From: Eunapius fragilis
Lineage: Eukaryota; Porifera; Demospongiae; Spongillida; Spongillidae
Reading direction: 5' to 3'
Assembly (NCBI GenBank): GCA_963681505.1
Contig: OY811987.1
Location: forward strand, 1,757,066-1,821,065
Length of the DNA stretch: 64,000 nt
In this document: positions 1,077 through 52,710 of the stretch, piece by piece
How positions within the stretch are numbered: the stretch's first letter is position 1
How the letters are laid out: every line of letters starts with the position of its first letter
The notes under the pieces: model-generated
Told to the model about the DNA's origin: nothing
What the model saw: the letters and a program-made list of their open reading frames with translations, nothing else
Databases searched by the model: none
Position numbers and translations under genes: made by a program

Positions 1077-4000
1077 TTAGTTTTCTAATGAAGTAACCTT
1101 CAGATCAATTACTAGGTTTGAACCCAACTCTGGGCCTATGGCTACAGTAAGTTCCTCAAATCTTCTCTCCATTAGCTCTCTCTGAATCTTGTCTACACCA
1201 AACCTTGAGAACACCTCACCAAGGTACATGTATGTGGCATAGTTCAAACAGACCACCATCTTGCTAACATCAGGCCTGTGCCCTGTCAGTTGCTGGTACT
1301 TTGCTCTGTCATTCTCAAATGCTGAACATGGCACATCAGGTGACACTTTCTTGTCCTTGTCTGTTATCTCCACAGCTATGGGTGAAGTGGCATTACTAGA
1401 TGGAAGGCCATTTTGATCATGTGTGTGTTCCCTGTGGTACTTCTCTGTAACCTCTTTCACAGCCTCCAAGGATGGAAGCCACTCTGGTGTTATACAGGCA
1501 CAATAATATTCCTCTGGAGGATAGTTGGCCTTGTAGGCAAGCTTCTTATCATTCCCACCCCATCCCTGGAGGTAGTAATACTTCATCTCTGGATTCTTCT
1601 TGCTCAGCTCTCGAACAAACTCTATCTCTTTGAGAGCAGAATAAACTCCAAGTGAGTACTTGGACACTTCTTTCTCCAGACTGTACCATATGTACACGCT
1701 GACAATGCCCTTTGGGACTATATCAATCAGACTAACAGCCACAAGCTTTCCATCCAATCGATACAACTGGTGAAAACTTCCGTACTCAATCCCATCCACT
1801 GTCTGATTCCTAATTGGGCTATCGACAGCATGCTCTCGATAATTATAATCCGAAGCCCGATGCTTATCAAGGCGTCCCACGTTGTAACTATTGTACAGCT
1901 CATGGGATTCTTGGGAGTACTGTGCTGGCACTGTCTCCACAGTTAGACGGCCAACTGGCATCCTTCTCATGACCTTAGCGAAGCTCTTGTGTGAATGATA
2001 GTCAAAATCCCTCACCAGAACCCTGGTCTCCCACATAGAACACCTGACATCATGACACTGAGTGGTCCGGTACAGCTTGACTCCGCCTCTCCTAAACCAT
2101 CCGTAGTCGATTAGTTGTTGATACTGCTCGAGGGTAAGTCCGTGGGGACGTACAATCAGGTTGTCATACTGACTCTCGTTGACATGGCAGCCGCACGAGA
2201 TGGCCTGGGTACCGTCAATGTGCCCTATACGCAGTAGGGGTTTGTGCATGCTCAGTCCAAGAGAAGTCAGCTGTTGTATGCAGGTCTGGTCCAGCACAGG
2301 TGCAAGAGGAATGCACTGGCCCAGACCACTAGGTGCTGGGTCAGAGCTGACCTTTGGGGGCCAGCAATATTGTGTATCAAGAGCCAAACAACCAGGTATG
2401 GGTTCCCCCTGGGATGTTATGCAGTTGAGGAAAAGCCGTTCTACGAGCGTGGTAGCAACGGCACTCAGACGTGTGTTATTCTTGGCTCTGACGATCACAT
2501 TGATATCTACAGCCTTACGGATAACTGGGATCATGTGGTCCAGCTGGATCAACTGTAAGAAGAACACGAGGGCTGCGTTCATCAGGACGTAATCCATCCT
2601 GTTTATCATGCAGAAACTCATTCACCGTGTGCACAATACTAAAAACATCCTCAAAAGCACACTTGATGTCAGAAGGCAGCCACATTAGAATGGCCAGTAA
2701 ACCAAGCGCACGTGAGACCAAGTCGGAAATCCTGTGGTGAACTACCAAGACGCTCATGAGTGCTTGGGTACAACCCGATGCTACAAGTGTTTTCTTAACA
2801 GTGTCATCCTGTGACAAAACCATCAGCATGAAACAGCATGCAGTCATGACTTTGGTGTTATCTGTCATTGGATTATTCTTCACCAGATCTAAACAGATAT
2901 GGTGGTAGTTCTTCTCTATCAGGTATGCCTGTACCTTGCGTACATAGCCCACCCTGTAAAGTTCCAAGCAGGTTTCCTTATCCAGTATGATGTCGAACAG
3001 TGTGACGCATAGATTGTGGACCACCTGAGGCGAATGGACTGTCTTGTGCAGATTTGCAGTTCTCAGGTGATCAGCAATGAAGTCACAGAGGCCACATTTC
3101 ATGACAACAGTCATGTCCACCTTGGCATCCTTGTACAACTGCACGAGAATAGTGAGCAGAAAGGTGGCATTGCTGAGCAGGATCTCATCCACCGTATTGA
3201 CCATCCGAGGCAGTGCCTTCGTCAGTGACCCGTGGAACGCACAGGGGTGAAGTGTCTCGGCCACGCCCTTGGCATTGTCTTTGGGGGGCAGGTAGCTCAG
3301 CCACATGTTTATCGCCGCCTCTGCACAGCTGGGCAAAGTAAAATCACGCTCAATAAATTTTATAAGAGAAGAAAGGAATTCACGGCTGTACAGGTTTGTG
3401 TTGGAGCCGCCTTTCAGAACAAGTGTGAGAGTCTCATACACTGATTTCAACCGTACTTCATTGGAGTAGACCACTTCATGAGACAGTGCCTCTGCGAAGA
3501 AGGCAGAACTGTCACACGTGTAAAACTCTTTCTTAGCAAGACGTTCCGCCACTGTATATGACAAGGAAATGATTTTCCATATTGCTATGCAGGTGGGATC
3601 AACACAAACATCCAGATTTAGCCTTGCACAATCTAAAAACATGTCAATGATACTGAAACCGGCTGTTACAGACTTAGAGGGGGCTATAGGTATCATCATC
3701 AACAGCAAACTGAAAGTGCATTCCATTGTGCTGCTCCAGGAACCTGACCTGACGAATGGGATGAGGGCACCTACAAGGCCGGGATAATTGACACATCTCC
3801 TTGTGACGTCTGTGTTGGCTCCGCAAGCATCCCTCAAAAAGGAAATGACTAAATCTGAGAGGGAGGAGCTGCCACACCCCAGTGCTGAAACAGCTGCACC
3901 CATGATGTCATCAGATACTCGGGCCTGCTTGCCCATACGCCGGCTGTGGACGGCCAACAGCCTCCACATGTGAATCTGCACAGCTATGGACGTCGAGGTA

Positions 4001-4590
4001 GGCTGCATGCAGGCAATGGCGACCAAGGAGTTAGCCAAGGTCTCGTTCCAGGCGGTGGTGATGGATGCTGTGCTGGTCTCTGCAATGGTCACCATGCATG
4101 CCAGCAGGGCCTCTAGTTGGACCAGGTCCATTTGAGCGTACTGCTCAAGAAGTTGATAAAGCTGACACTCAATGCCCATCTGCTCAAGCTCTTTCAGCTG
4201 GTTCCTGTCCAGCACTGCCAAGATGGCTCTCAGAAATGTGTTGCAGCTGCTGAACACCATGGTGTCATTCTTATTCTTCTCTAAATCAAGGGCCACCTTA
4301 ATCAAAGGTGATATTACATTGATGCCCACTGCCATAGGTACTCCATGGTCACCCCACAGGGACGCAGCAAAGACAAGTGCCTTGTGACAAAGGATGGGGC
4401 TTTTGGTGACCACTGTACTCAAGGCTTCTCTTTGGAGGGTGGTGAATGTTTCAGTGTTGTCTGGAGTGATAAGGAAGGGCTTGCAGAGTGGCATGGCATC
4501 AAAGACCAGGGTGAAAACACTTTCATCTCCAGGATATGTTTTCAGAAGTTTCGGCATAGCATCAAGAAGCCTGAGAGTTTCATAAGGCAA
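1077..4590 (-). pseudogene. Armadillo-like repeat / ATE1 arginyltransferase gene, copy A, frameshifted
   Basis: This is the sister of the intact frame at 40,387-43,980. The N-terminal 691 codons (2,515-4,590) carry the helical-repeat region. The C-terminal 514 codons (1,077-2,621) carry the arginyl-tRNA-protein transferase region, with GWFRRGG, YGSFHQLYRLDGK and SLGVYSALKEIEFVREL all visible. The two parts lie in different frames because of a small frameshift near 2,590. Relative to copy B it also lacks 87 bp (29 codons) near 2,945 and has small differences near 2,475. The last codons end TSLEN before TAA at 1,077. The open frame has no ATG at its left end. A good splice acceptor (CTCTCAG then GCTTC) lies about 20 nt inside, so an upstream exon is likely. 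This copy probably makes no full-length protein unless the frameshift is a sequencing error. Confidence 0.8.
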
Positions 4591-5252
4591 GTGGGAGGAT
4601 ACGAAGAAAGAGTGGGTGGAGGGTACAGGGAGGAAGAGGAAAATGAAGGAAGGAGGAAGGGTGGGAAGGTTAGCGGATGGGAGGAGAGGGGAAGGAGAGG
4701 TGGGGGAGTTGACAGGTTAGGGATTGAGAGGGAAGGGGAGGAGGGTGGAATGTTAAATCATGGGAATTAGGCCACTCCAAACTGGTCTTTAGTTTCCTGT
4801 CCACCCGCAATCTAAATAGCCCACGCCTAAAACTTATATTATTGCTATATAAGGCCATGCGTTTGTGTTATTAAATGTCAACTTTAGTTATTCATCTGCT
4901 TATTAAAACCATGTGCCATTTTGCAATTGTCAGCCAATTGCCAATTGAGAATGAAAAAGAAAGAAACTTAACTCTGTTGGTTGTATTTGTATTTTATCCT
5001 ATATCCACGGTTACGGTTATTATAATCCTTTTGTAGAGACGGTTATATAATTTGGCGAATTTCAACTGTCTCCGTATAAAGAAAGGATTACCCGCTACAA
5101 CAAAATATGGTTCCAAACCTTTGCACTTGTCGATTGTCATATAATCCGCCATGGTTATGGTCCTGTAAGAAACTGACCAGCAGCTCGCGGTCCTCATCCT
5201 GCTGTACGTATGGAAGCGCAGGGACGGGTAAATATGGCGACCGCAAGGTATA
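4591..5252 (-). other. Upstream region of the ATE1-fusion gene, possible first exon
   Basis: Reading on the minus strand, about 150 bp just upstream of the open frame are almost purely pyrimidine, like a long 3' splice-site tract. A candidate short first exon starts at ATG 5,152 (MADYMTIDKCKGLEPYF) and runs into a GTAATC donor-like sequence. The same exon is preserved in copy B at 44,542. Its phase does not join cleanly to the acceptor I chose, so the gene start stays unresolved. Confidence 0.35.
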
Positions 5253-5548
5253 CAAGTAAATAAAAACATTCTCTAACGAGAAAGTTGGTGGGCATATAGG
5301 ATTGACAATGTTGGTGTAAAAAGCACGGAAACAAGTGTGACAGAAATGTTACTGGAAAATTGAAATAGGCCTATATTTAGCCCAGTCACATTTAGGCAGC
5401 GCACGCCTGAGAAAATGGGCTAAATATAGGCCTATTTCAATTTTCCAGTAACATTTCTGTCACACTTGTTTCCGTGCTTTTTACACCAACATTGTCAATC
5501 CTATATGCCCACCAACTTTCTCGTTAGAGAATGTTTTTATTTACTTGT
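5253..5548. repeat. Terminal hairpin of X1
   Basis: Two arms of about 130 bp, nearly perfect inverse complements, flank a loop of about 30 nt. Each arm starts ACAAGTAAATAAAAACATTC. Related hairpins lie at 34,693-34,977 and, cut short, at 52,711-52,931. In all three cases the hairpin follows the Pro/Ala-rich gene of an X unit, and in X1 and the copy-B X3 the shared flank AAAAAAAAC.TATGAA precedes it. It is therefore part of the X element rather than an independent foldback element. Confidence 0.85.
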
Positions 5549-5653
5549 TTCATAAGTTTTTTTTTCTTTTTTTTTCTCTGTGTCAAAGAACGTATAAACT
5601 TTTACAATAAGACTTTAATAATTAAATTAATAAATTATAGAACACATAGTTAA

Positions 5654-6130
5654 TTAATAATGATAAGTATAATTGTTTTTAATATAATTAATTATAGTTC
5701 CACGTCCTCGGCCTCTTCTCCCTCCTCTTCCTCTTCTCCCCCCCCCCCCCCCCCCCCGTCTTGGATATGGCCATGCGGGTGGCGGGGGCAGGAAAAAAGG
5801 CGGGGGCAGCATTGGGGGGAGCAGTGGCGGGGGCAGCGCTACTGCTGGTAGCGCTGGCGGGGGCAGCGCTGCTGCTGGTAGCGCTGGCGGGGGCAGCGGT
5901 GCTGCTGGTAGCGCTGGCGGGGGCAGCGGTGCTGCTGGTAGCGCTGGCGGGGGCAGCGGTGCTGCTGGTAGCGCTGGCGGGGGTCCTTTCTTCAACATCA
6001 GATAACTAATATACAATAATGTACAGACACAGATGCAGGAACAAATACCTTTTGTACAAACATTGACCTTTACGTGTACAAGGAAACTGGGAAGCCTTAC
6101 TGTACATCTGATAATACGGTATGCAGGCAT
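5654..6130 (-). CDS. Pro/Ala-rich repeat protein of X1
   Basis: The frame has about five tandem 30-bp units reading LPPPALPAAP-like peptides, then a tail rich in Arg and Gly (RRGRGGRRGRGRG). This layout, a proline-rich repeat followed by an RGG-like basic tail, is shared with the third gene of X3 (51,633-52,460), which supports it as a real X-encoded protein despite low complexity. The N-terminal 50 residues before the repeat resemble no known domain, and the acidic start seen in X3 is missing, so this copy is rearranged. Function unknown; a nucleic-acid-binding role is only suggested by the Arg/Gly tail. Confidence 0.45.
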   Translation of the reverse strand: MPAYRIIRCTVRLPSFLVHVKVNVCTKGICSCICVCTLLYISYLMLKKGPPPALPAAPLPPPALPAAPLPPPALPAAPLPPPALPAAALPPPALPAVALPPPLLPPMLPPPFFLPPPPAWPYPRRGGGGGGRRGRGGRRGRGRGTIINYIKNNYTYHY

Positions 6131-6182
6131 ACAAGAAATGTGTTAATGAGCCACGTGCAAAGCAGCCCTTAGATTTTAAATG

Positions 6183-6710
6183 CTACATACAGCATGCTAT
6201 AACATACCTTTGGGTGGTAGTGGTAGTTCTACGACCCTTCCAATACCGACTCCTTCTAGCTGCCTTAATGGTAGCTGAATTGCCCCTGTATATCCGCCTT
6301 TTAGCAGCATGGTTCTCCTCGACGCCCTCTTGATATCGCTGCCTTTTAGCAGCACGGTTCTCCTCGACGCCCTCTTGATATCGCTGCCTTTTAGCAGCAC
6401 GGTTCTCCTCGACGCCCTCTTGATATCGCTGCCTTTTAGCAGCACGGTTCTCCTCGACGCCCTCTTGATATCGCTGCCTTTTAGCAGCACGGTTCGCCTC
6501 GACGCCCTCTTGATATCGCTGCCTTTTAGCAGTACGCTTAGATACAGCATTTGCGTTGTAGGTGTCGCGTACAGAGGCCTTCTTCTTTTCAGGGTCGGCC
6601 TTGTAGCGCGCTCGGGCTTTAGCCTTGTTCTCTTGTGATAAAATATCTTCTCGTTTTTGGAGGTATTCCGCTCGTTGCTTAGATCTCTTCTTTTGATTAC
6701 GCGAAGGCAT
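6183..6710 (-). CDS. Basic 15-residue-repeat protein of X1
   Basis: The start is the ATG at 6,710 (MPSRNQKKRSKQRAEYLQ). After KADPEKKKASVRD comes a run of five 15-residue repeats (AKRQRYQEGVEENRA, 45 bp each) and a basic tail ending TTTTTQR. At 6,208 the sequence AAAG/GTATGT forms a splice donor that is conserved in the X2, X3 and X4 copies, so the reading frame beyond it is probably intron. The protein is highly charged and probably helical. From memory, similar repeat blocks head Helitron-type proteins in sponges, which fits the element ends. No catalytic domain is present. The exact function is unknown. Confidence 0.6.
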   Translation of the reverse strand: MPSRNQKKRSKQRAEYLQKREDILSQENKAKARARYKADPEKKKASVRDTYNANAVSKRTAKRQRYQEGVEANRAAKRQRYQEGVEENRAAKRQRYQEGVEENRAAKRQRYQEGVEENRAAKRQRYQEGVEENHAAKRRIYRGNSATIKAARRSRYWKGRRTTTTTQRYVIACCM

Positions 6711-7021
6711 TTTTAGAAAAACAACTTCACTAGCCAAAGTAAGGTAACGACTAAACTGCGATAGGAACACCAAATAAATTTAGTGCCTGTTGGAGTATTT
6801 ATACTCCCTAAAATTATACATTTTATTAAGAACTTGCTAGAACTTGCTAGATGGCCATAGAACTTGCAACAAAATAGGGTATTTCTCGCTGTAGTTTCTT
6901 TCTAGATGTGATATGTGTCCAAATGACATGCTAGGATAACGTGCCGGTAAATTCTGAAGAGATTGGTACTATTGTCGTTCTTTAAAACCGTTCGTAGCTC
7001 GAGTTATACCTTCCTAAGGAA

Positions 7022-7090
7022 TAGTCTCGTACCCAGACGTATAAATGGACGTTTTATACGTCTGGCGAAAATAGGTAGAATTTCGTGGCA
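7022..7090 (+). repeat. Left terminal inverted repeat of the DUF6589/RecQ element
   Basis: It pairs with 12,145-12,209. The repeat contains its own small palindrome, CAGACGTATA..TATACGTCTG, so each end can form a hairpin. The 9-bp target duplication lies immediately outside at 7,013-7,021. Confidence 0.85.
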
Positions 7091-7211
7091 CATTGGAATG
7101 TAATTAACAGCACAAGTCACGCGCCAAACGGTAATTAACAGCACACGTCACGCGCCAAAAATGCGACACGCAATTAAATAATCATTAGCGACTGCTATAA
7201 ACCACGACCAC

Positions 7212-10200
7212 ATGGCTTGCCTTATGTGCGGCGAAACTGTGGTCAAAAAGAACAGGAGATCTATAAGCAACAGGAATCGTGCTGTGTTTGAACAGCTATT
7301 TACGCTGGCCGTAACTCTTTTCCCGCCATCATCTGTTCAAATACTTTTAAGTCACAACAGTTTCCTGTGTCCACCATGTTATAGACTACCCGAAAGGCTG
7401 ACTGCTTTGACTAATGAAGGTACTGAACTAAAAAACTGCATCCTACAGCGTCTAGAGCGCGCAGGAGGTAGCCTTGGCTTCATAGCAGATAAAGGGGAAC
7501 GAGATCCTGGTGCAACACCTGCAAGGAAAAGGTCAGGTAAAGAAACCACTGCTGAACCTAGCAGAAAGAGAGCCCTGGATTTTGGAGAATGCAGCCCTTC
7601 AAAGAAATCTCCGTCAGTGGTGGTGAGTTGTTTTATACCATAAATAAAATTTTAAGACACATGTATATTTCAGATAACGGTCCAAACAGAACACAAACAA
7701 CGACGGTGTAAGATTGTTAAGAAGGATTCAGGCCTGAAGACTCTCACACGAAGCATTGCTCGTGGCAATAAACGTTCAATTGCCAGGGAAGTTATGAAAG
7801 ATCCAGAACTTAAACAGTTGGTAATAGGGAGTCTAGCTAAGTATGTGCATAAGGAAATGAAGGCCGTTTGCTTAAAGAAAAATGGGTCAATTTTGCGTTC
7901 CAATGAACATCTCAATTGTTTTTCATGGAGTGATATATTATCTGATGTTGAAGTGCATGCACCCACTTTGGTGCAACTTTTGAAATGTATTAGTGAGGTT
8001 AAGCATTATGTGAGATCCTCTGATGTAAGTTTAGCAAAGAAAAATAAATCTAATGATTTCACTGCGGGGCTGTGTTTATCAATTCTGCTGAGGCATAGAA
8101 GTATGCATATGAATTTGGTGCAGAAAGCCATTTCACTTATTCTAAATGCTGGTCATGCCTCTGAGCAGGTAATATTTTGTATTTTACATTTTATATGAAC
8201 ACATTTGGTCTCCCTTAATTTAGACATATCGACGGCTTCAAAAAATGAGGTTATGTATATCTCGGAGGTCCACTACTGCTTTGCTAGACACTATAGGGTG
8301 CAATCACGACTTGGAGGTTAAGAAGTGGCAAGAAAAGATCAGTGAATATATCAAACCTATTGTAAGCAGGCATGCATGTCAAAGGTTTATTTATGTTTTG
8401 GTGTTTCACAGCACATTGAAACTGAATATGTCACAGCACCATACTCTGAAGATATGTCACCCAGTAGTGAAAATATTGTAAGTATGCACATTGATTCATG
8501 CATGTCAAAGTTATATTATGTTTTGGTGTTTCACAGCACATTGAAACTGAAAATGTCACAGCACCACATTCTGAAGATATGTCACCCAGAAGCCCTTCTT
8601 TCTCAAGTGTTTCAGATCTTTCATCAGATATGGTCAGAATATTCGGTCAAGATAAAGATACAGATGCAGACACATCGGCTACTGAATCGCTTTGCAGCGA
8701 ATCAGTTTCAAGTGCAACAGATTTACAGTCAGAAATGGACAGGTTAGGAAGAGATAAACCTCGAGGTTTCACAACATTCAAGATAATAGGTGACAATCTT
8801 GACAAGAATGTCAAACCACGGGACATGAGAAGTGATTTTCAAACTCGTTCTCTTCATTACTTTCATGCTTGTGCAGTTGAAGATCGCATAGATCTTTCAG
8901 GTTTTAGTGGTGACGTTACAATTCCAGATATACAGTCAATACAGCTGTGTAACTTACTGCCTAGTGATTCTGATAGAGCAGCAATGAAGAATAATTTTGG
9001 TATCCATATAGCAAGAGTTCTGGTAAAATATGTAACATTTTTTCAGAAACTAGGGCAAAAGAATGACCTAAGACATATAAAGCACAAGTTCTGGAAGGAA
9101 ATGTCACAAAAGTCAAAAGTGGTTAGTTTATACTCCACGAGTTGTCTATGATTCATGATTTCTTTGTTAGATACCTTTGGGCATATCCCTAAAAGGAGAA
9201 CAAAACTATGAAGATATGAAGGAGGTTCTTAATAATCTACATCAATATGTTCCAACAGTTTCAACTGAAGAACAGATAACAGCATGTGTTCAGGGTAAAA
9301 CTATATCCAAGGTTGTTTACATTGACAAGTTTGATCCAATTCTGCTAGGTAAAAAAAAAAAAAAATTATTGTGGTTTTTTTTAAATTGTTGCAACTCTTT
9401 GTATAGGCGGTGATCAGATGACAGCAGCAAGAACTAGAGGGTGCAAACAAGTAATGAGTATTGCTGACAGGGGTAAAGAACGATTAGAAGGTTTGATCCC
9501 AGTTGTTGAGGATTGGCATGCGAAAATGTGCTTGTTAGAGGTATAAGCATGCACAGGTGCAATCATTTACTATATTAACATAAATCTTTGTTATAGGTAA
9601 TATGGAAACATCTATATAAGTGTGCTTCCTCAAAAGATGGAGGAACGCTGTATCAGTTGAGAAACATTATCAAACGCAGAAATGTTACCAGTTCTCCTTC
9701 AAAATGTATGGATGCTTGTGAAGACTTTTTTGTTACTGTTGTTGAGGCACATATAGTGTGTGCTGCTCTACATTTGTTTGGTATGAAAAATCGAGATGAT
9801 ACTCCTTCAATACCACTGTTCCCTGAAGGCTGCTTACAGTTTCACAGAAGTCAGCGAAACTCTCTTTTGTTGACTGCAGCACAAAATATTGTAGAAAACT
9901 TTGTGGACATTGCTTATGGCTTGCAAAATGACTCAAGTCATTCCAGTAATGACCATGTGAAAGAGTATGCTTGTGATGTTTTAAATCTTGGCCTCATGTT
10001 GATGGAGTTTAATGACTCCATTAGAGAGGGTGATGGTGAACGAATTATTCGCTGCTGGAGATACTTATTGCCTTTGTTTAAGGTATCTGGCAGGAAGAAT
10101 TACTGCATAGAAGCCTTTACACTTCTTGCTCAATATTCATATCTGCTGTCACCCAGGAATGCCATGCAACTAATGTGGAACAGAACTGTAAATGTCCATG

Positions 10201-10598
10201 GAAAACCAGGAAAAAATATATCCTGTGATCTTCATCTAGAACATTTGAATCGAGAGGCTAAGAACTGCATTGCTGGACTTGGAGCAAATATTACAGAAGA
10301 GGCAGTTGAACGCATAGGAAAGAGCATAGGACCTAGTATCACTGTCTTAAGAAACTTTGATTCGGTTACTGGAATTAAAAAGGCATCAACCAGCCATTCA
10401 AAACATTCGAGTTTGAAAGACGTCGACATATTGGTACAACAGCTTCATGAAACTAGTACAGTCTTTAACTCTGTTCCTGGGCGTAAACACAGAAGTTTTG
10501 AGAAGTACAAAGCCAATATGCAATGCATTACAGTACCTGAACTTAGTGAATGGATGAGTAAGCAATGGGACAAAATTATGGCATCTCTTCCTCTGTAA
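7212..10598 (+). CDS. DUF6589-domain protein, probable transposase, 8 exons
   Basis: Exons read from GT-AG borders and frame are 7,212-7,622, 7,674-8,168, 8,224-8,361, 8,412-8,477, 8,537-9,121, 9,171-9,348, 9,407-9,540 and 9,597-10,598. They sum to 3,009 nt, giving about 1,002 residues with no break; introns are about 50-60 bp. Exon 1 starts with a Cys pair (MACLMCGE) and has a later CPPC, a possible zinc-binding module. The DUF6589 region covers roughly the last 450 residues, with GGDQMTAARTRG, LEGLIPVVEDWHAKM and GTLYQLRNIIKRRNV visible. Acidic residues in GDQ and EDWH are candidate catalytic positions, but I cannot assign them. Exons 4 and 5 begin with a duplicated peptide. The gene lies between the inverted repeats and faces the helicase gene, so it is most likely the transposase. 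Confidence 0.85.
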
Positions 10599-10645
10599 TG
10601 TACATGCATTGACCATTCCCTATATATCACAGTATAGTAATGAAA

Positions 10646-12017
10646 TTAACATTTTTGACATTTACATTTCTTTTCACACACATCACAGCACAAACATGTA
10701 TTTAACAAGTTACTAATATCTGTAGATGTATCTTCAAAAAAGTGTTCAATAATTGCTTGCCTTCTACACTGCTGCTCATTTAAGACAAAAACCTTCATGC
10801 TGTCTTGAAGGTATTTAAATGCCTTTTTATTAGGGACATAGAGAACAGCCTCTGAATGCAAACCATCTCTGCCAGCACGCCCAGTTTCTTGTGTATACGC
10901 TTCCAGATCAGATGGTGGACCCCAGTGGATTATTTTGCGAACATTTGGACAGTTGATTCCCATCCCAAATGCCACTGTTGCTACAACAACGCGAAGAATT
11001 CCATCAACAGCACAAAAAGAGTGTAAAATGTTCTTCTTAATGTCAGGAGGTGTACAAGCTGTGAACATGTCCACAAGCCGGAATATTGAAAGATCTCTGG
11101 TACCTACAGGTTCTGTTATTTCTGAGCGAAGCTTGGATCTGAAATATAAATACACAGAAGAGCAGTCGTCGTATGAACGGCAGTAAATTATCACTCTTCC
11201 CATTTGCACTCTTTCTGTTCGAACAGCTTCTACCAATGAAGAGAATGCTTCTTCAAAGCATATTGGTTGTCTGATAACTGTGTATTTTATGTTGGGTCTG
11301 TCAGGGATATCCACAACATAAACAGGGTTGTCCATCCCAAGAGTACGGCATATGATTTTTCGAGTTTTCGTAGTTGCTGTGGCTGTAAGAGCCATAACAT
11401 TAACCTTTTGTGGAAGAACACTTCTCAATGTACCCAACTGAGAGAAAGCTACTCTGAAGGTTTCACCCCTATATGGCAAAGAGGAACGCAGGTACCATAA
11501 ATAATGAGTTAAGTGCATTAATTGGAACTGACCATGTCTTCACACAATGAGCTTCATCTACAACAAGGCCGACGAGATGTTCTTGGTATACTGAGCTGGA
11601 TAGAATGTCATCCCAGCGCTCGTCGCATAGTATCATCTCGGGGCTAACAAAAACTAACTGATACTCGCCCCTGTAAAGCTTAGCTTCCATATCATTAGGA
11701 GAACCCTCCTGTAATGCTTCGCCTGCGTACACAGCAGCAATACCCCTTTCCATCACACTCTTAACTTGATCCTGCATCAGCGAGATCAAAGGGCTTACCA
11801 CCAGGACGATCCCGTGTAGAGATGACAGTTGATTGAACATCTCGGGAAGGATTGCGAAGCACAAAGACTTCCCACTGCCAGTTGGTAAGCAGACAAAAAC
11901 GTCCCGGCCTTGCACAAAGCTAGTGATGGCAGTCTTCTGATGAGGGCGAAGCGCTGGGTATCCCAACTTTAATACAGCGTTTGACAAGGCGGTTTCTATA
12001 GCAGCGTCAGAATGCAT
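10646..12017 (-). CDS. RecQ-type DNA helicase carried by the transposon, 2 exons
   Basis: The start is the ATG at 12,017; a longer frame to 12,041 begins with TTG. Exon 1 is 12,017-11,533, the intron is 64 bp, and exon 2 is 11,468-10,646, giving about 435 residues unbroken. Visible motifs in order are the Walker A LPTGSGKS, DEAH in VVDEAHC, ALTATATT, ATVAFGMGINCPNVR and QETGRAGRDG (motif VI). The protein ends in a Cys-rich tail (CLCCDVCEKKCKCQKC), a probable zinc-binding element, and lacks the HRDC domain of longer RecQ proteins. It is an ATP-dependent 3'-5' helicase by family. It is encoded in the same inverted-repeat element as the DUF6589 gene, convergently, and so probably assists transposition or repair of the donor site. 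Confidence 0.9.
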
Positions 12018-12144
12018 ACCAGAAGGCAAGCTAATATCCAAATGGCATGTAATTATGACACCATTTGTTTACCTTATCACATGACTGTGGGTGTGTCACA
12101 TGACTGCCCGCATCTGATTGGTAGCGACAGAATTCTGTCGCTAA

Positions 12145-12209
12145 TGCCACGAAATTCTACCTATTTTCGCCAGACGTATAGTTTTTATATACGTCTGGGT
12201 ACGAGACTA
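12145..12209 (-). repeat. Right terminal inverted repeat of the DUF6589/RecQ element
   Basis: It is the inverse complement of the left end with few changes, ends GAGACTA, and is followed by the second CCTAAGGAA at 12,210-12,218. A (GAC)n run follows directly in the X1 host sequence. Confidence 0.85.
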
Positions 12210-12479
12210 CCTAAGGAAGACGACGACGACGACGACGACGACGACGAACAATTTTTTTGGGAATGGGCACGAGAAGCAGGTTCTTTGTTTGTCTGGAAGC
12301 GCATAGTTTAATGACATGAAACTAGCATGAAAACGTAGATCTTGGTGTTGTCGTTCGATTGCTGCAATGAGATAAGTGATCCGTTTCTCCGTTGTCCCTC
12401 CCGACGCGATTTAAAATTTTTAATGACATTCATCATTCCTCAATCAATCCTATATTGAACCTGCTGACGCAGGTTCAGA

Positions 12480-13334
12480 TGAATCTCTCACTTGAGGTTT
12501 CGACGAAAAAGGCCCACTCGGTGCATCGAGCTGCATTTATCCAGAACCTACAATTTGAAGAAGGAAGACGGTTAGCACGCAAGACGCTAGTACACATCAT
12601 TAGGCGGTGAACGAGAGCGGTAGTGAGGGCCCTATATGCCACGCCCTTCGTGCACTTACCCCAAACAGTCGTTTCTGAGCGATTGCCTTGTACGGTAATT
12701 GCGATATGAATTGGTAAATATTTTTATGGTTGGTCACCACGCAACTACACTATCGTTGCATTAATGCTGAAGCGTAGCACGTGGTTATGAATTTCACTAA
12801 CCAGTATTACTGAACGATCATTGGAGGGTACGGTTTGACTGACCCAGGCTATAATGACGTAAGCATTAGTGTCCAGCAAAATCACCCTTCTGGATAGTTT
12901 TTCAAGTTTTCAAATTTTTGGATTTTCAGTGAACTCCAAAGAGTTTCTATCAAATGGTCCTTACGCATCCAAAATTGGGCTATCCGTCATAAAGTTATAA
13001 GGTACTGAATTTATAATTAGCCATACATTTCAATGCGAGCGTTACTTTTCTTTTGCTTGTCCTGTAAAATTTGATATCATAGGGGTGATTTTGCTGGGCA
13101 CTGTTCCATATCATGATAGCAAGTCGATAATTATGGTCGGATTTTGCATGACCTTCTTACCAAGTGAATCTGGACAGTGGACGGTGTAGCGTAAGGTCTG
13201 GAAATTGTTGACCAACATGTATCTTTTTGCATGCCTAGACCACATTGCAGCGTAATTGATTGTACACATAATTTCCGAGTTCATGTTAAATCGCCGTTCC
13301 ATATATCATCTACGCGTAGACGATTCAGTGTATA
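12480..13334. other. Spacer between X1 and X2, shared by both copies
   Basis: It is almost identical to 44,642-45,514, except that copy B has an extra 20 bp or so near 45,281-45,300. It holds one short inverted-repeat element (12,869-13,101). The small open frames on both strands are not convincing. This is probably the ancestral intergenic DNA into which X1 and X2 inserted. Confidence 0.6.
12869..13101. mobile_element. 233-bp MITE
   Basis: The ends GTGTCCAGCAAAATCACCC and, inverted, GTGCCCAGCAAAATCACCCC face each other. The interior is AT-rich and non-coding. The same element sits at the matching place in copy B (45,032-45,264), so it is older than the duplication. No clear target duplication was seen. 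Confidence 0.65.
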
Positions 13335-13740
13335 TCCTGAACCTGCGGCAGCAGGTTCATTATAGGATTGATTGAGGGTTGATGAATGTCATTAATCTAG
13401 CGTATGGAGGGACAATGGAGAAACGGATCGCTTATCTCTTTATCGCGATGGAATGAGAGCACAACGATCTACAGTTCTACGTTGGTTCCGTGTCATTAAA
13501 CGGTGTGGTTATAGAGAAACAAACAATTTCCTGTTTCTCGTGCCCATTCCTAAAATAATCCTTGGTTGTCGTCTTCTTCTTCTTAGGAAGGTGTAATTCG
13601 AGCTACGAACGGTTTTGAAGAACAGTAATAGTACCAATCGCTTCGAAATTTACCGGCACGTTATCCTTACATGTTATATAGACACATATATATCAAGTTC
13701 TAATTAATAACGATATATAATAGATTTTTATTAATAATTG

Positions 13741-14182
13741 TAGCGGGATTGTCAGCTGGGGCAGCCGCCTTGTCCACTGAAGATCGAAAGCATACTGACA
13801 ATGACCCCAAATGCAATGCTTTGGGCTGGTGTTGTGTATCTCTGCATGGTCACGGAGTCCTATGGTGCTTGGGGAAAGGAAGTCGTGGGCTCGTTTAAGA
13901 TGCTTGCCTCCCGTCTTGCCATCATATCGGGCAAACCAAAGTCAGTTGTGCTGTATGAACTGTATAACAAGCTCAACTTGCATCTGGTGAGGGCAAATGC
14001 GACAGCAATCCTTTCCAGGTGGCTCCCATATAAAGTTTATTGAACTGTAGCATGATTTATTAATAATTCATGCATGCTGTTTCTCCTCCAATAATAATAA
14101 TAATCCCTGTACGTGCATTTATTCCCATTCGTGTATTCCTCTATATCTTATTCTTGTTACTATTATTTTAAATAATTTTAGG
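13741..14182 (+). mobile_element. 5'-truncated LINE fragment inside X2
   Basis: The piece matches the C-terminal end of the endonuclease-type LINEs seen at 31,049 and 54,940: AGAAALSTEDRKHTDNDPKC, then, after a frame change, ESYGAWGKEV and LHLVRANATAILSR. An AT-rich tail with TAA runs follows. It is absent from the same place in X3, where the flanks TTAATAAT and GGC(A/T)GTATAAATACTC are nearly adjacent. It is a dead 3' fragment and is shared with copy B (45,921-46,362). Confidence 0.75.
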
Positions 14183-14261
14183 CAGTATAAATACTCTAAC
14201 CTGCACTATTATTGGTGCAGTTTAGTTGTTACTTTGGCAAGTGAAGTTGTTTTTCTAAAAA

Positions 14262-15827
14262 TGCAAAAGAAGAGATCTAAGCAACTAGCGGAATACTTCC
14301 AAAAGCAAGACGAGAACAAAGCTAAAGCCCGAGCGCTCTACAAGACCAATCCCGAAAAAAAGAAGGCCTCTGTACGCACAGCTACAAGGGCGATCGCGAA
14401 AAGAAAAAGGCCTCTGTACGCGACAGCTACAAGGCCGATCCCGATAAGAAGAAGGCCTCTGTACGCGACAGCTACAAGGACGATATTGAATCTAAGCGAT
14501 CTGCTAAAAGGTGGCGATATGAAGAGGACCTCGAGAAGAACCGTGCTGCTCGGTATGTAGAGAACCACGAGGAGAACGGTGCTGCTAAAAGACGCCGATA
14601 TGAAGAGGACCTTGAGGAGAACCGTGCAGCTAAAAGGCGGCGATATGGAGAGGACCTCGAGGGAAACAGCGCTGCTTAAAGGCGAGGACAATTCAGCTGC
14701 CATTAAGGTGATAGGGTACCCTCCTGGAATTTGAAAAAAAATCATACAAGCTTGTAGCCTGAGAGCATCTTAGAGGACCGTATCATTTTGACAGTTATTA
14801 GATGAGCAGTAAAAATGGTACAAATATTCCAAGAACAAAACTTTATAATTGGTTTGTTGAAAACTGCAGTGCTTAAAAATCACCAAATTTGGAGGATAAA
14901 TATGAAATAATATCTTCTTTCGTTTGGTGCATTCGTTTCGAAACGGAGCAGTAGATTTGTGCCAAAGCTTATACTAACCATCGTTTCAGGGTGAACTAAT
15001 TAGGCTACTCATGGATTACTCATGCTGGGCATTCCAGAACAGCTACTTTATCGTGATTACACGTTCTTCATTACTTAATTGTCCTTTTGGTGCATCGATA
15101 ACGTTACTACCCTTTTCCACAAATGTACAGCAATTTTTTACAAAGTTACGCATCCCTGGACGCCATATTTGTACCTTGAAATTGAAATGTTATTAATAGA
15201 TAGATTTTCGGTTTTCGGCTATTTAGAAAAAAGTAACTTATTTTGAAAACAAGGACAAGATATTTTCCTACACGTACGCTCTTCTTGGTGCTTAGCTCCT
15301 ATCGTAATAATATGCTCAGCACTTGATCATAAGGTCTGTTGTCCTGAATGTGCAGGAAAAAGAGTTTTTACCGTTCGTATTTCAAGGTGCTCGTAAAACA
15401 AGCGGTGCTAGTGTTTCTGCGCGTTATTGAAATGCTATCAAGGTGGCATATCTTAAACAATAAGGTGGATTCTCTCCGAATTATATACGGTACTTGAACA
15501 GAACTACCAATTGTTGATGACGTATTTTAATAATTCAGACCCCAAAATACATGGCGGACTCAAACTGCGCATGCGTGCGCGAATTACAAGATGGCGGATG
15601 CCAAAGTTTAAGGCATTGCGCTCGGTTAAATACGTTACTTATCCAAATGATATCAAGGTGGCATATCTTAAACAATAAGGTGGATCTTACCAACTTTTTT
15701 TCCAAAAAAACCACGTTATGGGTACTACTACCTTAAAGCATCTGAAAGGAGTCGGTATTGGAATGACCCCGCTGTCCGATTGGCTAAATGTGCTGCCGAG
15801 AGGACGCGGTACCGCAGGGGTCAGAGA
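14262..15827 (+). pseudogene. Basic-repeat gene of X2, broken
   Basis: The gene starts at ATG 14,262 (MQKKRSKQLAEYFQ), having lost the PSRNQ residues of the other copies. The KADPEKKKASVRD block and about three 15-residue repeats follow, but with several frame changes (for example after KKASVR) and a stop in the last repeat. The 1,026-bp TTAA element at 14,707 splits it, and the tail resumes at 15,737 (ASERSRYWNDPAVR in one frame). A hAT element at 15,828 splits it again before the conserved splice donor near 16,607. It is non-functional. Confidence 0.75.
14707..15732. mobile_element. 1,026-bp non-autonomous TTAA-site element
   Basis: TTAA flanks both sides (14,703-14,706 and 15,733-15,736), and copy B keeps the empty site CCATTAAAGC at 47,921-47,930. 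Ends GGTGATAGGGTACCC and GGTAGTAGTACCCAT are only partly inverse. A 30-bp stretch (AAGGTGGCATATCTTAAACA...) occurs twice inside, near 15,438 and 15,656. It has no coding capacity. TTAA duplication fits piggyBac or Kolobok type enzymes; which one cannot be told. Confidence 0.8.
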
Positions 15828-23830: not shown

Positions 23831-23903
23831 ACTCTAACCTGCACTAAATTTATTGGTGTTCCTATCGCTTGTTACTTTGGCTAGTGAAGTTGTTTTTCTA
23901 AAA

Positions 23904-24400
23904 ATGCCTTCGCGTAATCAAAAGAAGAGATCTAAGCAACGAGCGGAATACCTCCAAAAGCAAGACGAGAACAAAGCTAAAGCCCGAGCGCTCTACAAGG
24001 CCGATCCCGAAAAGAAGAAGGCCTCTGTACGCGACAGCTACAAGGCCGATCCCGAAAAGAAGAAGGCCTCTGTACGCGACAGCTACAAGGCAGATATTGA
24101 ATCTAAGCGATCTGCTAAAAGGTGGCGATATGAAGATGACCTCGAGGAGAACCGTGCTGCTAAAAGGCGGCGATATGAAGAGGGCCTTGAGGAGAACCGT
24201 GCTGCTAAAAGGCGGCGATATGAAGAGGACTTCGAGGGAAACCGCGCTGCTAAAAGGCAGAAATACGAGGACAATTCAGCTGCCATTAAAGCATCTGAAA
24301 GGAGTCGGTATTGGAATGACCCCGCTGTCCGATTGGCTAAATGTGCTGCCGAGAGGACGCGGTACCGCAGGGGTCACAGAACTACCACTACCACCCAAAG
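23904..24400 (+). CDS. Basic 15-residue-repeat protein of X3 (first exon)
   Basis: The frame starts MPSRNQKKRSKQRAEYLQK. Two KADPEKKKASVRDSY blocks follow, then about four 15-residue repeats (AKRRRYEEDLEENRA type), then KASERSRYWNDPAVRL and a basic end TTTTTQR. A strong donor, CAAAG/GTATGT, lies at 24,400/24,401 and is shared by all X copies, so this is probably exon 1. It is the best preserved copy in the window: the copy-B version has an early stop. It has no enzyme domain and is highly charged. From memory, such blocks stand before DUF6570 and Helitron Rep/helicase regions in sponge proteins, so this may be the surviving front part of such a protein. Confidence 0.65.
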
Positions 24401-24461
24401 GTATGTTATGTCATGTTGTATTAACATTAAAAAGCTGTGCATGCATCATTTGTACGTACAG

Positions 24462-24548
24462 CATAGTCGGGCGGCCCTACTACCGCGTTTGGTCGGGCTT
24501 GCACCCTACTACCTGACCAAACGCGGTGATAGGGCCCGCCCGACTATG
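24462..24548. repeat. 87-bp hairpin after X3 gene 1
   Basis: The arms CATAGTCGGGCGGCCCTACT and their inverse include the inner pair CGCGTTTGGTC / GACCAAACGCG. The position is the same in copy B (50,790-50,876). Confidence 0.7.
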
Positions 24549-24586
24549 TACAGCACGGATCTGCATGTCATTGTTTTAATCTGATG

Positions 24587-25140: not shown

Positions 25141-25358
25141 TCAGTCATGCACCCGCTGAATTATAGTGCACTTTGAAAAAAGAGGTAGGAGTTTAATAAT
25201 ATACTCTATGTGGATTCACGTGTAAACTTGCTTGAAAAAAGAATTAGGTAAAAAAATTTAAAATCATACTCTCTGTCTCTGTCACGTACATGTAGATGGC
25301 AGCTGAAGACCTAACTGTTTTTTTTAATCAAGAGGGGTCGGAGGAGGAAGAGGATGAC

Positions 25359-25733
25359 TGTCAGGGAAGCCAGTTACAGCTGGAACCCAGAGGTCATCTG
25401 AAGAGTCACATGTTGATGAGTCACGTCTATCACGTCAGGGTGATAACGAGAGGTGCCGGCATGCCTATGCGGGCATAGGCATGCATGAGCACAACATGTG
25501 ATCGCGGCGCGGGACCAGACCAGTTTAGAACCGGTTTACCATAGATCCCCTATAAAACCCCCTTTCAGTGTTCGTGACTCAGTTGTTGAGAGAGTTGAGT
25601 GGAGTTGAGTATTAGAGTTGTACTAGAGTTGAACAGAGTTGTGTTGAGTTGCGTTTTGATACTGGTCCTGATGATCATACACACCCGGTGATTCTGTGCG
25701 TCGGTACGCTAGCGCGGTGAACGGTCATCGACA
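25359..25733 (+). repeat. Left LTR of the Gypsy element
   Basis: It is 375 bp, TGT...ACA, with a TATA-like CCTATAAAACC inside. A primer-binding-like stretch (TGGTGGCAGCGACGGGAT) follows two bases after its end. Confidence 0.9.
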
Positions 25734-28700
25734 TTTGGTGGCAGCGACGGGATCTTGGACCGTTAGACAGTTTTCTAACTTTAACGCGGAGCGACGGTGT
25801 ATGACAACCCGTTCCGGTAGATAATTCCGAGCAGGCGAAATGGCGGAGCAGGCTTTGCAGGACATGCTGCAAAAATTGATCGAGGATCGGCAGAAACGGG
25901 AAGAGGAGATCGAACACGAAAGAATCAGACGAGAGGAAGAACGCGTACAACGCGAGAAGGAGATAGCAGAGGAGAGGGCGAGGCGAGAGGAAGAACGCGT
26001 GCAACGCGAGAGAGAGGTGGCAGAAGAAAGGATGCGACGAGAAAGGGACGCGCGCGAGAAGGTAGAGGAAATGAGAGCGCAGATGGATAGATTAATGAAG
26101 ATCGTTGAAGAACAGAAGTCCGCGTCAGCATCAAAGGGGACCACAGAATTGAATGTAAAGCTGGTCGCCCTGACTGAACGTGACGATATCGAGTCATATC
26201 TGGTGACCTTTGAACGAATTATGACAGCGCACAAGGTGGACAAAGGACGTTGGCCTCACTACCTTGCGCCCCAGCTGACCGGAAAAGCTCAACTGGCCTT
26301 TGCGGCGCTGCCTGTGTCAGACTCGGCGGACTACGACGCGATAAAGGCGGCGATCCTCGTACGGTACGACATTAACGAGGACGCGTTCAAGAATCGTTTC
26401 AGATCATCGAAACGAAAGGATGGTGAAACAAATCGAGAGTTTGCAGTGAGGATGATGGACTCATTGACCAAGTGGCTCAAGGAGTACAAGACGGTCGACC
26501 AGGTCCATCAGGTAGTGGGGATAGAACAACTTCTGAGCTCGCTCCCAGTGGAGAAGAGATTGTGGCTAGTGGAGCGCAAACCGAAGACGTGTCTTCAGGC
26601 AGGCGAGTGGCTAGATGAGTACGAGCAGGCAAGGAGGCAAGACGTCAGACCTCTCAAACAGAGAGAGAATCCGGTTCCAGCTAAGGAGCCCGGTGATGCG
26701 TATGGGAACAAGGATGCAGTTCCGAAGAATTCTCAACCGGAGCAAAGGAACCCGCAGCGCCACCTACCTAGATGCTACAATTGTCACAAGGTGGGTCATG
26801 TGGCGAGCAATTGCCCGAAGAATGCCGCGACGTTTTACGGAGGGAGAGCGACGAAACAGTCCGAAGTGAAGAGGGGACACTCGTCGCCGCACAAGCTGGG
26901 CTATGTGGAGGGAACAGAAGTGAGGGACATCGTTCTGGATACGGGGGCAGCCAGGACATTAGTGCGAGACAATCTAGTGCCTAGGAATAAGTATCTTGAT
27001 AAATTCGTGTCAGTGCAATGCGTGCATGGTGACCATGTCTCTTACCCTCTAGCCAAAGTGAAAGTGGTGATCGACGGAAGGAGCTACTTTGTGGAGGCAG
27101 CCGTGGTGAAGAAACTACCTGCGTCCGTGCTACTGGGAAGAGACGTGCCTGAACTGGTGCAGATTGGTGGAGCAACAGAGGAGGTGCTGGCAGCTGTGAC
27201 AAGAGCTCAGGCCAAACGGAGGTCGAAGGAGGAAGAGAGTGCATCCAAAAAGGAGAAAGGATCTGGTGTTACGTGTAGAGATTTGTCACCAGCTCGTGTC
27301 ACAAAGGTTAACGAGGAAGAGAAGCGGTCTCCCGGACCGGCTGAGATAGAGAAAAATGCTGACCCTCAACAGGAGGATACCAAGGTCTCGAATGGAGTAA
27401 AGGAGATTGCCTCTGGAGATAGTAACCTTGGAGTTGATGGGAATGAGCTAAGGAAGTTGCAACGGGAGGATGAGACACTGAGAAGTGTATGGGACTCCGC
27501 GAAGCAACCGTCAAAAGGTGGAAACTACTGGTTTTATGAAGAGGATGGCCTTCTTTACCGTCATTGGCAACCCCGAGAGGAAGGAGAGGAGTTCAGTGTC
27601 GAGCAGCTAATTGTTCCCAAGCAATACCGAGAGACAGTTCTGAGGATAGCTCACGAGATACCACTTGCTGGGCATATGGGTAAGAAAAAGACGGTTGACC
27701 GAATCATGCAGAGATTCTATTGGCCGACGTTGTATCGGGATGTAGCTGAATGGTGCAGGACTTGTGAGAAGTGCCAGAAACATTCTCCAATCAGGAACTT
27801 GCGAGCACCCTTAGTTCCACTGCCGGTAATCGAGGAACCATTTACCAGGATTGCGATGGATGTTGTCGGTCCTCTACCGCGAAGTAGCTCTGGGCACAAG
27901 TACATACTGGTTGTGTGCGATTACGCTACTCGATACCCTGAGGCCATACCCATGAAGGCAGTCGATGCAGAACATGTTGCTGAGGAACTTGTGACCATGT
28001 TCTCACGTGTGGGTGTGCCGAGTGAAATTCTCACTGATCAAGGAACAAACTTCATGTCGAAGCTACTGAGTGAACTCTACCGGCTTTTGCACGTACGGCG
28101 GATAAGGACCAGTCCGTACCACCCCCAGACGACTTAGTCGAAAGGTTCAACGGAACCTTAAAATCTATGCTTCGCAAGACAGCAGTAGAAGGGAAGGATT
28201 GGGACAAGCTGCTCCCATATCTGCTGTTCGCATACCGTGAAGTTCCTCAGGCATCTACAGGATTCTCGCCGTTCGAGTTGATGTATGGCCGACACGTGAG
28301 AGGGCCTCTTGACATACTGAGAGAAACGTGGAAGGCTAGCAAACGTAGTGATGACAGTGTAGTATCATACGTCTTGACGGTGCAGCAGAAACTTGCAAAG
28401 ATGTCAGAGCTTGTGAGCGAAAACTGTAAGGAAGCACAGATAGAGCAAAAGAGATGGTACGATCGCAATGCGCGGAAAAGAGAGTTTGCGGAGGGAGACC
28501 AGGTGTTGGTCCTACTACCCACGATAACCAACAAGCTGATGGCAAAATGGCAAGGACCTTACCTCATCAAGGCGAAAGTCACCCCGGTGACGTATGAGAT
28601 TGATATGAGTGACAGGAAGAAGCGGCAACGTATCTTCCATGTCAACATGTTGAAGGGGTGGAATACTCCGACAACGATGTGTCTGGCAGCCGAGGAGACC

Positions 28701-30180
28701 GAAGAAGGGGAAGAAATCCCGTTGTGGAAGGAAGACAGTGGAGAGCCGAAGATCAACGAACGCCTAACTCCTAAGCAAAGGGGACAGCTAGATGTGTTGA
28801 GGGCTGAATTTAAAGATGTGATGAGTGATCTCCCTGGAAAGACTGAGCTGGTGGAACACAGGATAGAGACTGGAGAAGCGAAACCAGTCAGACTACCACC
28901 TTATCGTCTGCCTCACGCTTATCGGGACATCGTGAAGAAGGAACTGGAGGAAATGGAGAAGTATGGCATCATCGAAAAATCCACGAGTGATTGGTCCTCT
29001 CCGATAGTACTCGCGAAGAAGAAAGACGGAACACTGCGCTTCTGCATCGACTTTCGCAGGTTGAACAGTGTCTCCAAGGCGGACGCTTATCCAATGCCTC
29101 GCGTTGACGATCTGCTGGATCAAGTTGGACAAGCGCGGTTCATCAGTACCTTAGACCTCACCAAGGGGTACTGGCAGGTCCCGATGGAGAAGACAGCTCG
29201 ATCAAAGACCGCCTTCAGGACTCCATTTGGACTCTACCAGTTTCGTAGAATGCCCTTTGGATTGCAGGGAGCTCCATCAACGTTTCAAAGGATGATGGAC
29301 AGTTTGCTGGTGGGAACGCAGGACTATGCAGCTGCCTACCTTGACGATTTAATCATTTTCAGCCACAGTTGGCAGGAACATCTGTCACATCTTAGGAGAA
29401 TACTGCAGAAACTGAGGGAGGCGGGCTTGACAGTCAAGCAGAAGAAGTGTCAGCTCGCCATGTCGCACTGCTCATACCTTGGTCATGTTGTGGGGGAGGG
29501 GCTCGTGCGGCCTGAACTCTCGAAGGTCGATGCTGTGAAACAGTTCCAGGTTCCCACCACGAAATCCGCTGTTAGAACGTTCCTCGGATTAACAGGATAT
29601 TACAGGAAGTTTATCCCTGGGTATGCAGAACTCGCAGCCCCATTGACAGATCTGACAAGGAAGAACGCCCCGAACATAGTGAGGTGGACTGAAAGATGTG
29701 ATGGCGCTTTCAACCGACTGAAGGAATGTCTCTGTAGTGAGCCGATTTTGAGATGCCCCGATTTCTCTCTGCCGTTCGTACTTCAAACTGATGCCTCCGG
29801 ACGGGCGATTGGTGCCGTGTTGAGCCAGGTGGTGGGAGACGGTGAGGAGCATCCAGTCGCGTACTACAGCAGAAAGCTACTCCCTCGCGAAGAAAAATAC
29901 TCGACGGTAGAAAAGGAGTGCCTAGCAATCATCCAGGGTATCCAGACATTTCGTGTGTACCTCCTGGGCCGTCCGTTCACCATACAGACAGACCATCGGT
30001 CCCTAGAATGGTTGGATCGCCTCAAGGAGAACAACAGTAGGCTGACCCGTTGGAGCCTGGCGCTTCAACCCTACCAGTACTCTGTCCAGTACCGGACTGG
30101 TCAGAAGAACGGAAATGCCGATGCTCTCTCCCGGTACATGGTCGAGGCGACAAGTGTGTCGCAGGAGGAGGTGGAAGGAG

Positions 30181-34690: not shown

Positions 34691-34692
34691 TA

Positions 34693-46526: not shown

Positions 46527-47090
46527 TAGTCTCGTCCCCAGACCCTACACTTCACGTGTTAGGGTCTGGGATTTCGAGTCGCTAGCACTTGTACCATCTG
46601 GAATGTAAACAAACAATTATCGCTTGACCACATCCGATAATTATCTAGCTTATTAAAGCTATGGCGACGGTATGGACCCCGTATCAGTCAAAGGCGACAC
46701 GCAAATCACAATTGAAGACCTTGTCTTTCCACGAAGGTGGTCGTAAACGTACGGTAACAGAATATAACATAGAGTTTTACCGTATCCTGTTGGCAAAAAA
46801 AAACAAAACAATCACGGCCATATACAAAGCTACATATAGCCTCCTTCGGCTTGTCCTTCAATGTCTCCACTTTCAGTTCTGTCATCGCGAAACGCATAGC
46901 TTGTTCGACCGTATCCATACTTACACGTAGTGTGTGGGTCTGGGTCGAGCAATGTTTATGTACATACGTCATAACACGAATTCCAGCGTTCGGTACACTT
47001 CCGCCCCATACGAAATACCAGACCTATACGAGCGTGTTTATACATTATGCGATAAACACATTGCGTCATATTGGTCTGGGGCCGAGACTA
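46527..47090 (-). mobile_element. 564-bp deletion derivative of the DUF6589/RecQ family
   Basis: It starts TAGTCTCGTCCCCAGACC and ends GGTCTGGGGCCGAGACTA, with the 9-bp duplication CTACAAGAC on each side (46,518-46,526 and 47,091-47,099). Copy A has the empty site at 14,338-14,346. As in the 5.19-kb element, a small palindrome (CAGACCCTACAC...GTTAGGGTCTG) follows the left end. A minus-strand frame reading MDTVEQAMRFAMTELKV ... SFVYGRDCFVF near the right end matches the start of RecQ-type helicases but with a ruined ATP-binding loop. It is thus an internally deleted copy of a helicase-bearing relative. Confidence 0.85.
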
Positions 47091-47195
47091 CTACAAGACC
47101 AATCCCGAAAAAAAGAAGGCCTCTGTATACGCACAGCTACAAGGCCGATCGCGAAAAGAAGAAGGCCTCTGTACGCGACAGCTACAAGGCCGAAA

Positions 47196-52690: not shown

Positions 52691-52710
52691 GGTGAAAAAA
52701 AACCTATGAA

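What the first reader, a model, noticed from the sequence alone, without database searches (positions are those of the whole stretch)
7022..12209. Intact two-gene transposon: DUF6589 protein plus RecQ helicase between inverted ends with a 9-bp duplication
Seen: 65-69 bp inverted ends, CCTAAGGAA on both sides, eight exons and two exons that each stay in frame to the end, and convergent stops 47 bp apart. Known: DUF6589 and RecQ domains. Inferred: DUF6589 is the transposase and RecQ a helper. Carriage of a RecQ helicase with a 9-bp duplication does not fit the textbook description of Academ (3-4 bp), so this may be an undescribed group. It is the best candidate for an active system in the window.
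Basis: partly seen in the sequence, partly recalled or inferred. Interest (0 to 1): 0.85.

Follow-up and report, generated by a model that had tools for sequence, protein, structure and literature searches.

The report
AcademH-type transposon with RecQ helicase
This is a complete-looking jumping gene that carries its own presumed transposase and a RecQ DNA helicase, and it fits a kind of transposon (AcademH) that has already been described, so it is a good specimen but not a new class.

Summary
Window 7022-12209 is a 5,188-bp element with 69/65-nt inverted ends and the 9-bp duplication CCTAAGGAA. It holds an 8-exon DUF6589 gene (1,002 aa, +) and a 2-exon RecQ gene (435 aa, -), with convergent stops 47 bp apart.

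A second element was found. At 46527-47090 a 564-bp relative with matching outer ends holds a decayed RecQ start and its own 9-bp duplication (CTACAAGAC). Its empty site lies at 14338-14346 in a 98%-identical duplicate segment. So 2 of 2 elements show 9 bp and RecQ sequence.

The "undescribed group" reading fails. A 2023 paper says AcademH makes 9 or 10 bp duplications and encodes a helicase, against 3 or 4 bp and a nuclease for AcademX. A 2013 paper mentions RecQ helicase in Academ.

Untested: a sequence match of this transposase to Academ (no Repbase here). Inconclusive: a nuclease fold (models of mean pLDDT 41 and 37).

Possibly fresh: all four ends fold a hairpin from nt 11-12, although stem letters differ.

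The parts
7013..7021 (.). left target-site duplication CCTAAGGAA
   Evidence: one near-copy in diverged paralogous empty sites
7022..7090 (+). left terminal inverted repeat, 69 nt; holds a hairpin CCAGACGTATAAA..TTTATACGTCTGG
7100..7159 (+). two tandem copies of a 29-nt subterminal repeat (97% alike)
7212..10598 (+). DUF6589 gene, presumed transposase, 8 exons, 1,002 aa: exons 7212-7622, 7674-8168, 8224-8361, 8412-8477, 8537-9121, 9171-9348, 9407-9540, 9597-10598
   Evidence: GT..AG introns and open frame; Pfam PF20231 2.4e-53
10646..12017 (-). RecQ helicase gene, 2 exons, 435 aa: exon 1 12017-11533, intron 11532-11469, exon 2 11468-10646
   Evidence: TIGR00614 9.2e-83, above its cut-off; best solved relatives are RecQ and WRN
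12122..12143 (.). 22-nt perfect palindrome just inside the right end
12145..12209 (-). right terminal inverted repeat, 65 nt; holds a hairpin CCAGACGTATA..TATACGTCTGG
12210..12218 (.). right target-site duplication CCTAAGGAA
46518..46526 (.). left target-site duplication CTACAAGAC of the second element
46527..47090 (.). second, short element (564 bp) with matching outer ends, read as an internal deletion derivative
46689..46912 (-). decayed 5' part of a RecQ gene (two pieces, 43% and 47% identical to the first element's RecQ), in two frames
47091..47099 (.). right target-site duplication CTACAAGAC of the second element
14338..14346 (.). empty site of the second element in the duplicate segment, one copy of CTACAAGAC

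Best explanation
The element is most likely a member of the AcademH lineage of Academ DNA transposons. The DUF6589 protein is most likely a DDE-type transposase: it binds both ends, cuts the element out and joins it to target DNA at positions 9 bp apart; gap filling then makes the 9-bp duplication. The RecQ protein is an element-encoded helper, most likely unwinding DNA at the excised ends or at the donor gap during repair. Shown here: the ends, the duplication length in two elements, the empty sites, the gene structure, the RecQ identity, and RecQ sequence inside the ends of both elements. Taken from print: AcademH's duplication length and helicase. Inferred: that DUF6589 is the transposase, the cut-and-paste route, and the role of RecQ.
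For: Nine-bp duplications at 2 of 2 elements in the window. An empty site for the second element in a 98.3%-identical duplicate segment, identical at every base from 14250 through the junction up to a 2-nt gap further on. Two diverged empty-site paralogs for the first element. A full RecQ gene in the first element, and a RecQ 5' remnant in the second that likewise starts within about 200 bp of an end and reads inward. No nuclease family in the Pfam matches of the two proteins at E up to 0.1. The printed statement that AcademH makes 9 or 10 bp duplications and encodes a helicase, and that RecQ helicase occurs in Academ.
Against: The defining AcademH paper (Kojima 2020) is not held, so the definition rests on a short passage in a later paper. 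No Academ protein could be compared with this one, so the link between DUF6589 and the Academ transposase was not tested. A text search for DUF6589 gave 0 papers; PF20231 gave one unrelated paper. Both structure models were unusable. No relative was found in viral contigs, genome contigs or phages, collections of viral and prokaryotic sequence in which one was hardly expected, and the first and third of these searches reach close relatives only.
Confidence: 0.85

Rival explanations
1. A KolobokH-like element: Kolobok transposons of fungi also carry a RecQ helicase, so the RecQ could mark Kolobok instead of Academ.
For: [quoted passage not shown]
Against: Kolobok makes TTAA 4-bp duplications and has 5'-RR..YY-3' termini. 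Here the duplications are 9 bp without TTAA and all four ends begin 5'-TAGTCTCG.
Confidence: 0.03
2. An undescribed transposon group that acquired RecQ independently.
For: DUF6589 could not be tied to any Academ sequence here.
Against: The combination of a helicase with a 9-10 bp duplication is already stated for AcademH.
Confidence: 0.07
3. Same element, different route (a rival on mechanism, not on identity): RecQ drives a replicative or single-strand-release mode of movement instead of helping repair after excision.
For: All four ends fold hairpins, and a helicase is encoded. Helitrons are a precedent for a transposon with a helicase and single-stranded transposition (PMC12730594 passage).
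Against: Paired inverted ends and a 9-bp duplication at both elements are the usual marks of paired strand transfer by a DDE-type enzyme (general knowledge). No HUH or rolling-circle family appears in the Pfam matches of either protein.
Confidence: 0.05

Closest known systems
AcademH (Academ superfamily; Kojima 2020, known here only through passages and reference lists of other papers)
   Same: encodes a helicase; 9 or 10 bp duplication stated, 9 bp found in 2 of 2 elements here
   Different: no difference found, but the transposase match itself was not tested
AcademX
   Same: same superfamily as AcademH by print
   Different: 3 or 4 bp duplication and a nuclease in place of the helicase; neither is seen here
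KolobokH
   Same: DNA transposon with a RecQ helicase
   Different: TTAA duplication and 5'-RR termini
Cellular RecQ helicases (bacterial RecQ, WRN, BLM, RECQ1, RECQ5)
   Same: helicase core with TGSGKS, DEAH and QETGRAGRDG motifs (which motifs matter is recalled); WRN chains align over residues 16-429 of 435
   Different: short protein of core plus a partial zinc-binding region (RecQ_Zn_bind 24.0 bits, just below its cut-off of 25); no further C-terminal RecQ family matched at E up to 0.1

Membership tests
AcademH | target-site duplication of 9 or 10 bp | tested here: met
   9 bp at 2 of 2 elements, empty sites; definition from PMC10045372
AcademH | encodes a helicase inside the ends | tested here: met
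   RecQ gene 12017-10646; RecQ remnant in the second element
AcademH | no AcademX-type nuclease | tested here: met
   Pfam scan of both proteins at E up to 0.1: DUF6589 alone; DEAD, Helicase_C, ResIII, RecQ_Zn_bind and a weak HD_assoc_2 (0.021)
AcademH | transposase related by sequence to Academ transposases | not testable with these tools
   no Repbase or Academ profile held; DUF6589 is of unknown function in Pfam
AcademH | RNase H-like DDE catalytic core | tested here: inconclusive
   two exon-level models with mean pLDDT 41 and 37; phmmer against solved structures, only hit E 0.43
Kolobok (KolobokH) | TTAA duplication | tested here: not met
   CCTAAGGAA and CTACAAGAC
Kolobok (KolobokH) | 5'-RR..YY-3' termini | tested here: not met
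   5'-TAGTCTCG at all four ends
RecQ family helicase | score above curated family cut-off | tested here: met
   TIGR00614 278.6 against 219.8; the two equivalog models for bacterial RecQ stay far below their own cut-offs
RecQ family helicase | zinc-binding domain | tested here: inconclusive
   RecQ_Zn_bind profile positions 29-66 of 66, 24.0 bits, cut-off 25; cysteine cluster at residues 420-432

The most novel reading that the evidence does not exclude
The ends of these helicase-bearing transposons are hairpins by design. Each tip reads TAGTCTCG, then at nt 11-12 a palindrome opens with (C)CCAGAC and closes with GTCTGG. Pairing is kept while stem letters change between the two elements, and between the two ends of the second one (imperfectly at its right end). 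The element's RecQ would act on these end structures, or the palindrome would be a paired binding site for the transposase, which would tie the RecQ cargo to the form of the ends and perhaps to the long duplication.
Probability: 0.12. Interest if true: 0.5.

Novelty: new member of a known kind. Interest (0 to 1): 0.22.

Why it matters
It supplies an intact two-gene copy plus a short derivative with a near-identical empty site. That is useful material for testing why one Academ lineage carries a helicase and makes 9-bp duplications. It also places a Pfam family of unknown function (DUF6589) inside a defined mobile element with insertion sites known to the base. The kind of element itself is already in print.

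Tried and rejected
Relatives by protein: none in viral contigs (transposase: 3 pattern matches, none confirmed; helicase: none), phages (exon 8) or genome contigs (DUF6589 core: 17 pattern matches, none confirmed). The exact 22-nt end of the first element was absent from viral contigs; the second element's ends were not searched there. No genome is held for this window, so other genomic copies could not be tabulated and the host was not identified; introns imply a eukaryote. Within the window, tblastn at E up to 1e-3 found no second DUF6589 region.

Solved structures: no credible match for the DUF6589 core (only hit E 0.43).

Structure models: only contiguous exon translations were submitted (exon 8; the 3' part of exon 5), each without an alignment. 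Both models are unusable, so no fold search was run.

Kolobok was considered because of its RecQ and rejected on duplication and termini. The tandem repeat with 125-nt spacing inside the DUF6589 gene is an exon-intron duplication and not a transposon end.

Subterminal motif TAGCGAC: chosen after looking. The window holds 4 copies (chance expectation 4.04), 4 of 4 inside the two elements. Because it was chosen after the fact it is a hint only.

Hairpins: the folded stretches (69, 65, 54 and 78 nt) were bounded after looking. The longest perfect inverted repeat in the first 89 nt was matched by 1, 2, 1 and 68 of 2000 single-base shuffles. The last figure, for the right end of the second element, belongs to a different, inner repeat, so the evidence at that end is weaker. 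One search kept dinucleotides.

Papers: Kojima 2020 was never seen (not held). Seen as passages: PMC10799480, PMC10045372 (its Discussion in full), PMC9587614, PMC8290104, PMC12210899, PMC10294476, PMC3627910, PMC12730594. Other papers were seen only in search listings.

Full report
What is there. The element runs from 7022 to 12209. Its ends pair over 22 and 36 perfect nucleotides around an unequal centre, so the left end is 69 nt and the right 65. CCTAAGGAA flanks it on both sides. On the plus strand, eight exons separated by seven GT..AG introns of 49-59 nt give a 1,002-aa protein. It matches Pfam DUF6589 at 2.4e-53 over positions 12-410 of a 410-position profile; exon 8 alone gave 5.5e-31, so splicing joins the domain as expected. 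On the minus strand, two exons around a 64-nt intron give a 435-aa RecQ helicase. The stops are 47 bases apart. The two other forward frames of the spliced sequences hold 69 and 97 stops (first gene) and 23 and 29 (second); the coding frames hold none before the end.

A second element. A search of the window for the outer 18 nt with up to 3 mismatches found four places: the two ends of the first element, and 46527-46544 and 47073-47090 (0.01 expected by chance). These last two bound a 564-bp element flanked by CTACAAGAC on both sides. Its own two outer 18-mers agree with one mismatch. Inside, on the minus strand, lies the 5' part of a RecQ gene in two frames, in pieces 43% and 47% identical to the first element's RecQ. 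As in the first element, it starts within about 200 bp of an end and reads inward. A tblastn search found no DUF6589 sequence there. I read it as an internal deletion derivative of a related family with the same layout.

Insertion sites. The window holds two copies of a segment, for example 12479-14354 and 44642-46534 at 98.3% identity. Copy 1 lacks the second element. From 14250 through the junction, up to a 2-nt gap further on, the two are identical, and copy 1 has one copy of CTACAAGAC at 14338-14346. That establishes the 9-bp duplication and places the insertion after the copies separated, unless an exact excision occurred. The first element sits in a repeat that occurs elsewhere in the window; the related but diverged sites at about 45.75 and 49.99 kb have one near-copy of the target sequence. 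The larger block 5252-12478, which includes the first element, is missing at 44642 in the other copy. The two copies may be paralogs or two haplotypes placed in tandem; this cannot be told here.

What it is. [quoted passage not shown] PMC3627910 lists 'RecQ Helicase in Academ' among proteins reported by Kapitonov et al.. Both features are met here. Kolobok elements with RecQ are excluded by duplication and termini. The remaining gap is the transposase: no Academ sequence is held, DUF6589 is a family of unknown function, and a full-text search for that word gave 0 papers.

How it probably works. A DDE-type transposase joins both ends to staggered target positions 9 bp apart. The RecQ helper probably acts on excised ends or on the donor gap. 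Repair that stops halfway would give deletions like the second element. These steps are inferred. The two fold attempts used stretches of single exons without alignments and gave mean pLDDT 41 and 37; they say nothing either way.

A detail that may be fresh. Folded as single DNA strands, all four ends form a hairpin whose stem begins at nt 11 or 12 from the tip, with z-scores of -4.84, -4.50, -6.65 and -3.59 and no dinucleotide shuffle of 200 as stable in each case. The first bases of the stem (CCAGAC..GTCTGG) are shared. The rest of the stem differs between the elements and between the ends of the second one, yet still pairs, with mismatches and bulges at the right end of the second. There are only four ends, two of them copies of one sequence; the stretches were bounded after looking; and a plainer count of perfect inverted repeats is strong at three ends (1, 2 and 1 of 2000 shuffles) and not at the fourth, where the longest repeat is another one (68 of 2000). 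The feature may be known from the AcademH paper, which I could not read. Paired binding sites for the transposase are the plainest reading.

Verdict. The interpretation as a transposon with presumed transposase and helper is reasonable; the suggestion that it is undescribed is not borne out. It is a new member of a known kind, and it may already be listed in Repbase, which I could not check.

Noticed in passing
1105-5252 and 12479-14354, against 40403-44642 and 44642-46534: A segment of several kb is present twice at about 95-98% identity and carries a gene with an arginine-tRNA-protein transferase C-terminal domain. It may be a segmental duplication or two haplotypes assembled in tandem.
   Followed up: partly
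5252-12478: This 7.2-kb block is absent at 44642 in the other copy, with no clear target duplication. It ends beside a hairpin-like sequence at 12456-12477 (TGAACCTGC..GCAGGTTCA) and includes the first element.
   Followed up: partly
6183-6779 (-), 23838-24584 (+), about 50230-50844 (+), also near 14.3 and 47.7 kb: A repeated family with ORFs of short repeats (such as KADPEKKKASVRDSYKAD and NRAAKRRRYEEG); the one member scanned, 23838-24581, has no Pfam match. Both Academ-type elements lie in members of this family.
   Followed up: partly
5252-5548: A 300-bp near-perfect palindrome (94.7% to its own reverse complement), related to sequence at 34684-34990 and 52695-52931.
   Followed up: no
25337-30555: A retrotransposon with 98%-identical 398-bp direct ends, in which the integrase domains lie upstream of reverse transcriptase and RNase H; I recall that this order is unusual for the Ty3 type.
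   Followed up: no
8362-8592: A tandem duplication with 125-nt spacing inside the DUF6589 gene appears to have created an extra exon with its intron (exon 4); both copies keep the frame and the acceptor site.
   Followed up: partly
7186, 12122, 12137, 46578: The 7-mer TAGCGAC occurs 4 times in the window, 4 of 4 inside the two elements near their ends; chosen after looking.
   Followed up: partly
about 47190-47655: In copy 2 a further insertion of about 466 bp with G-rich and C-rich runs follows the second element and is absent from copy 1.
   Followed up: no
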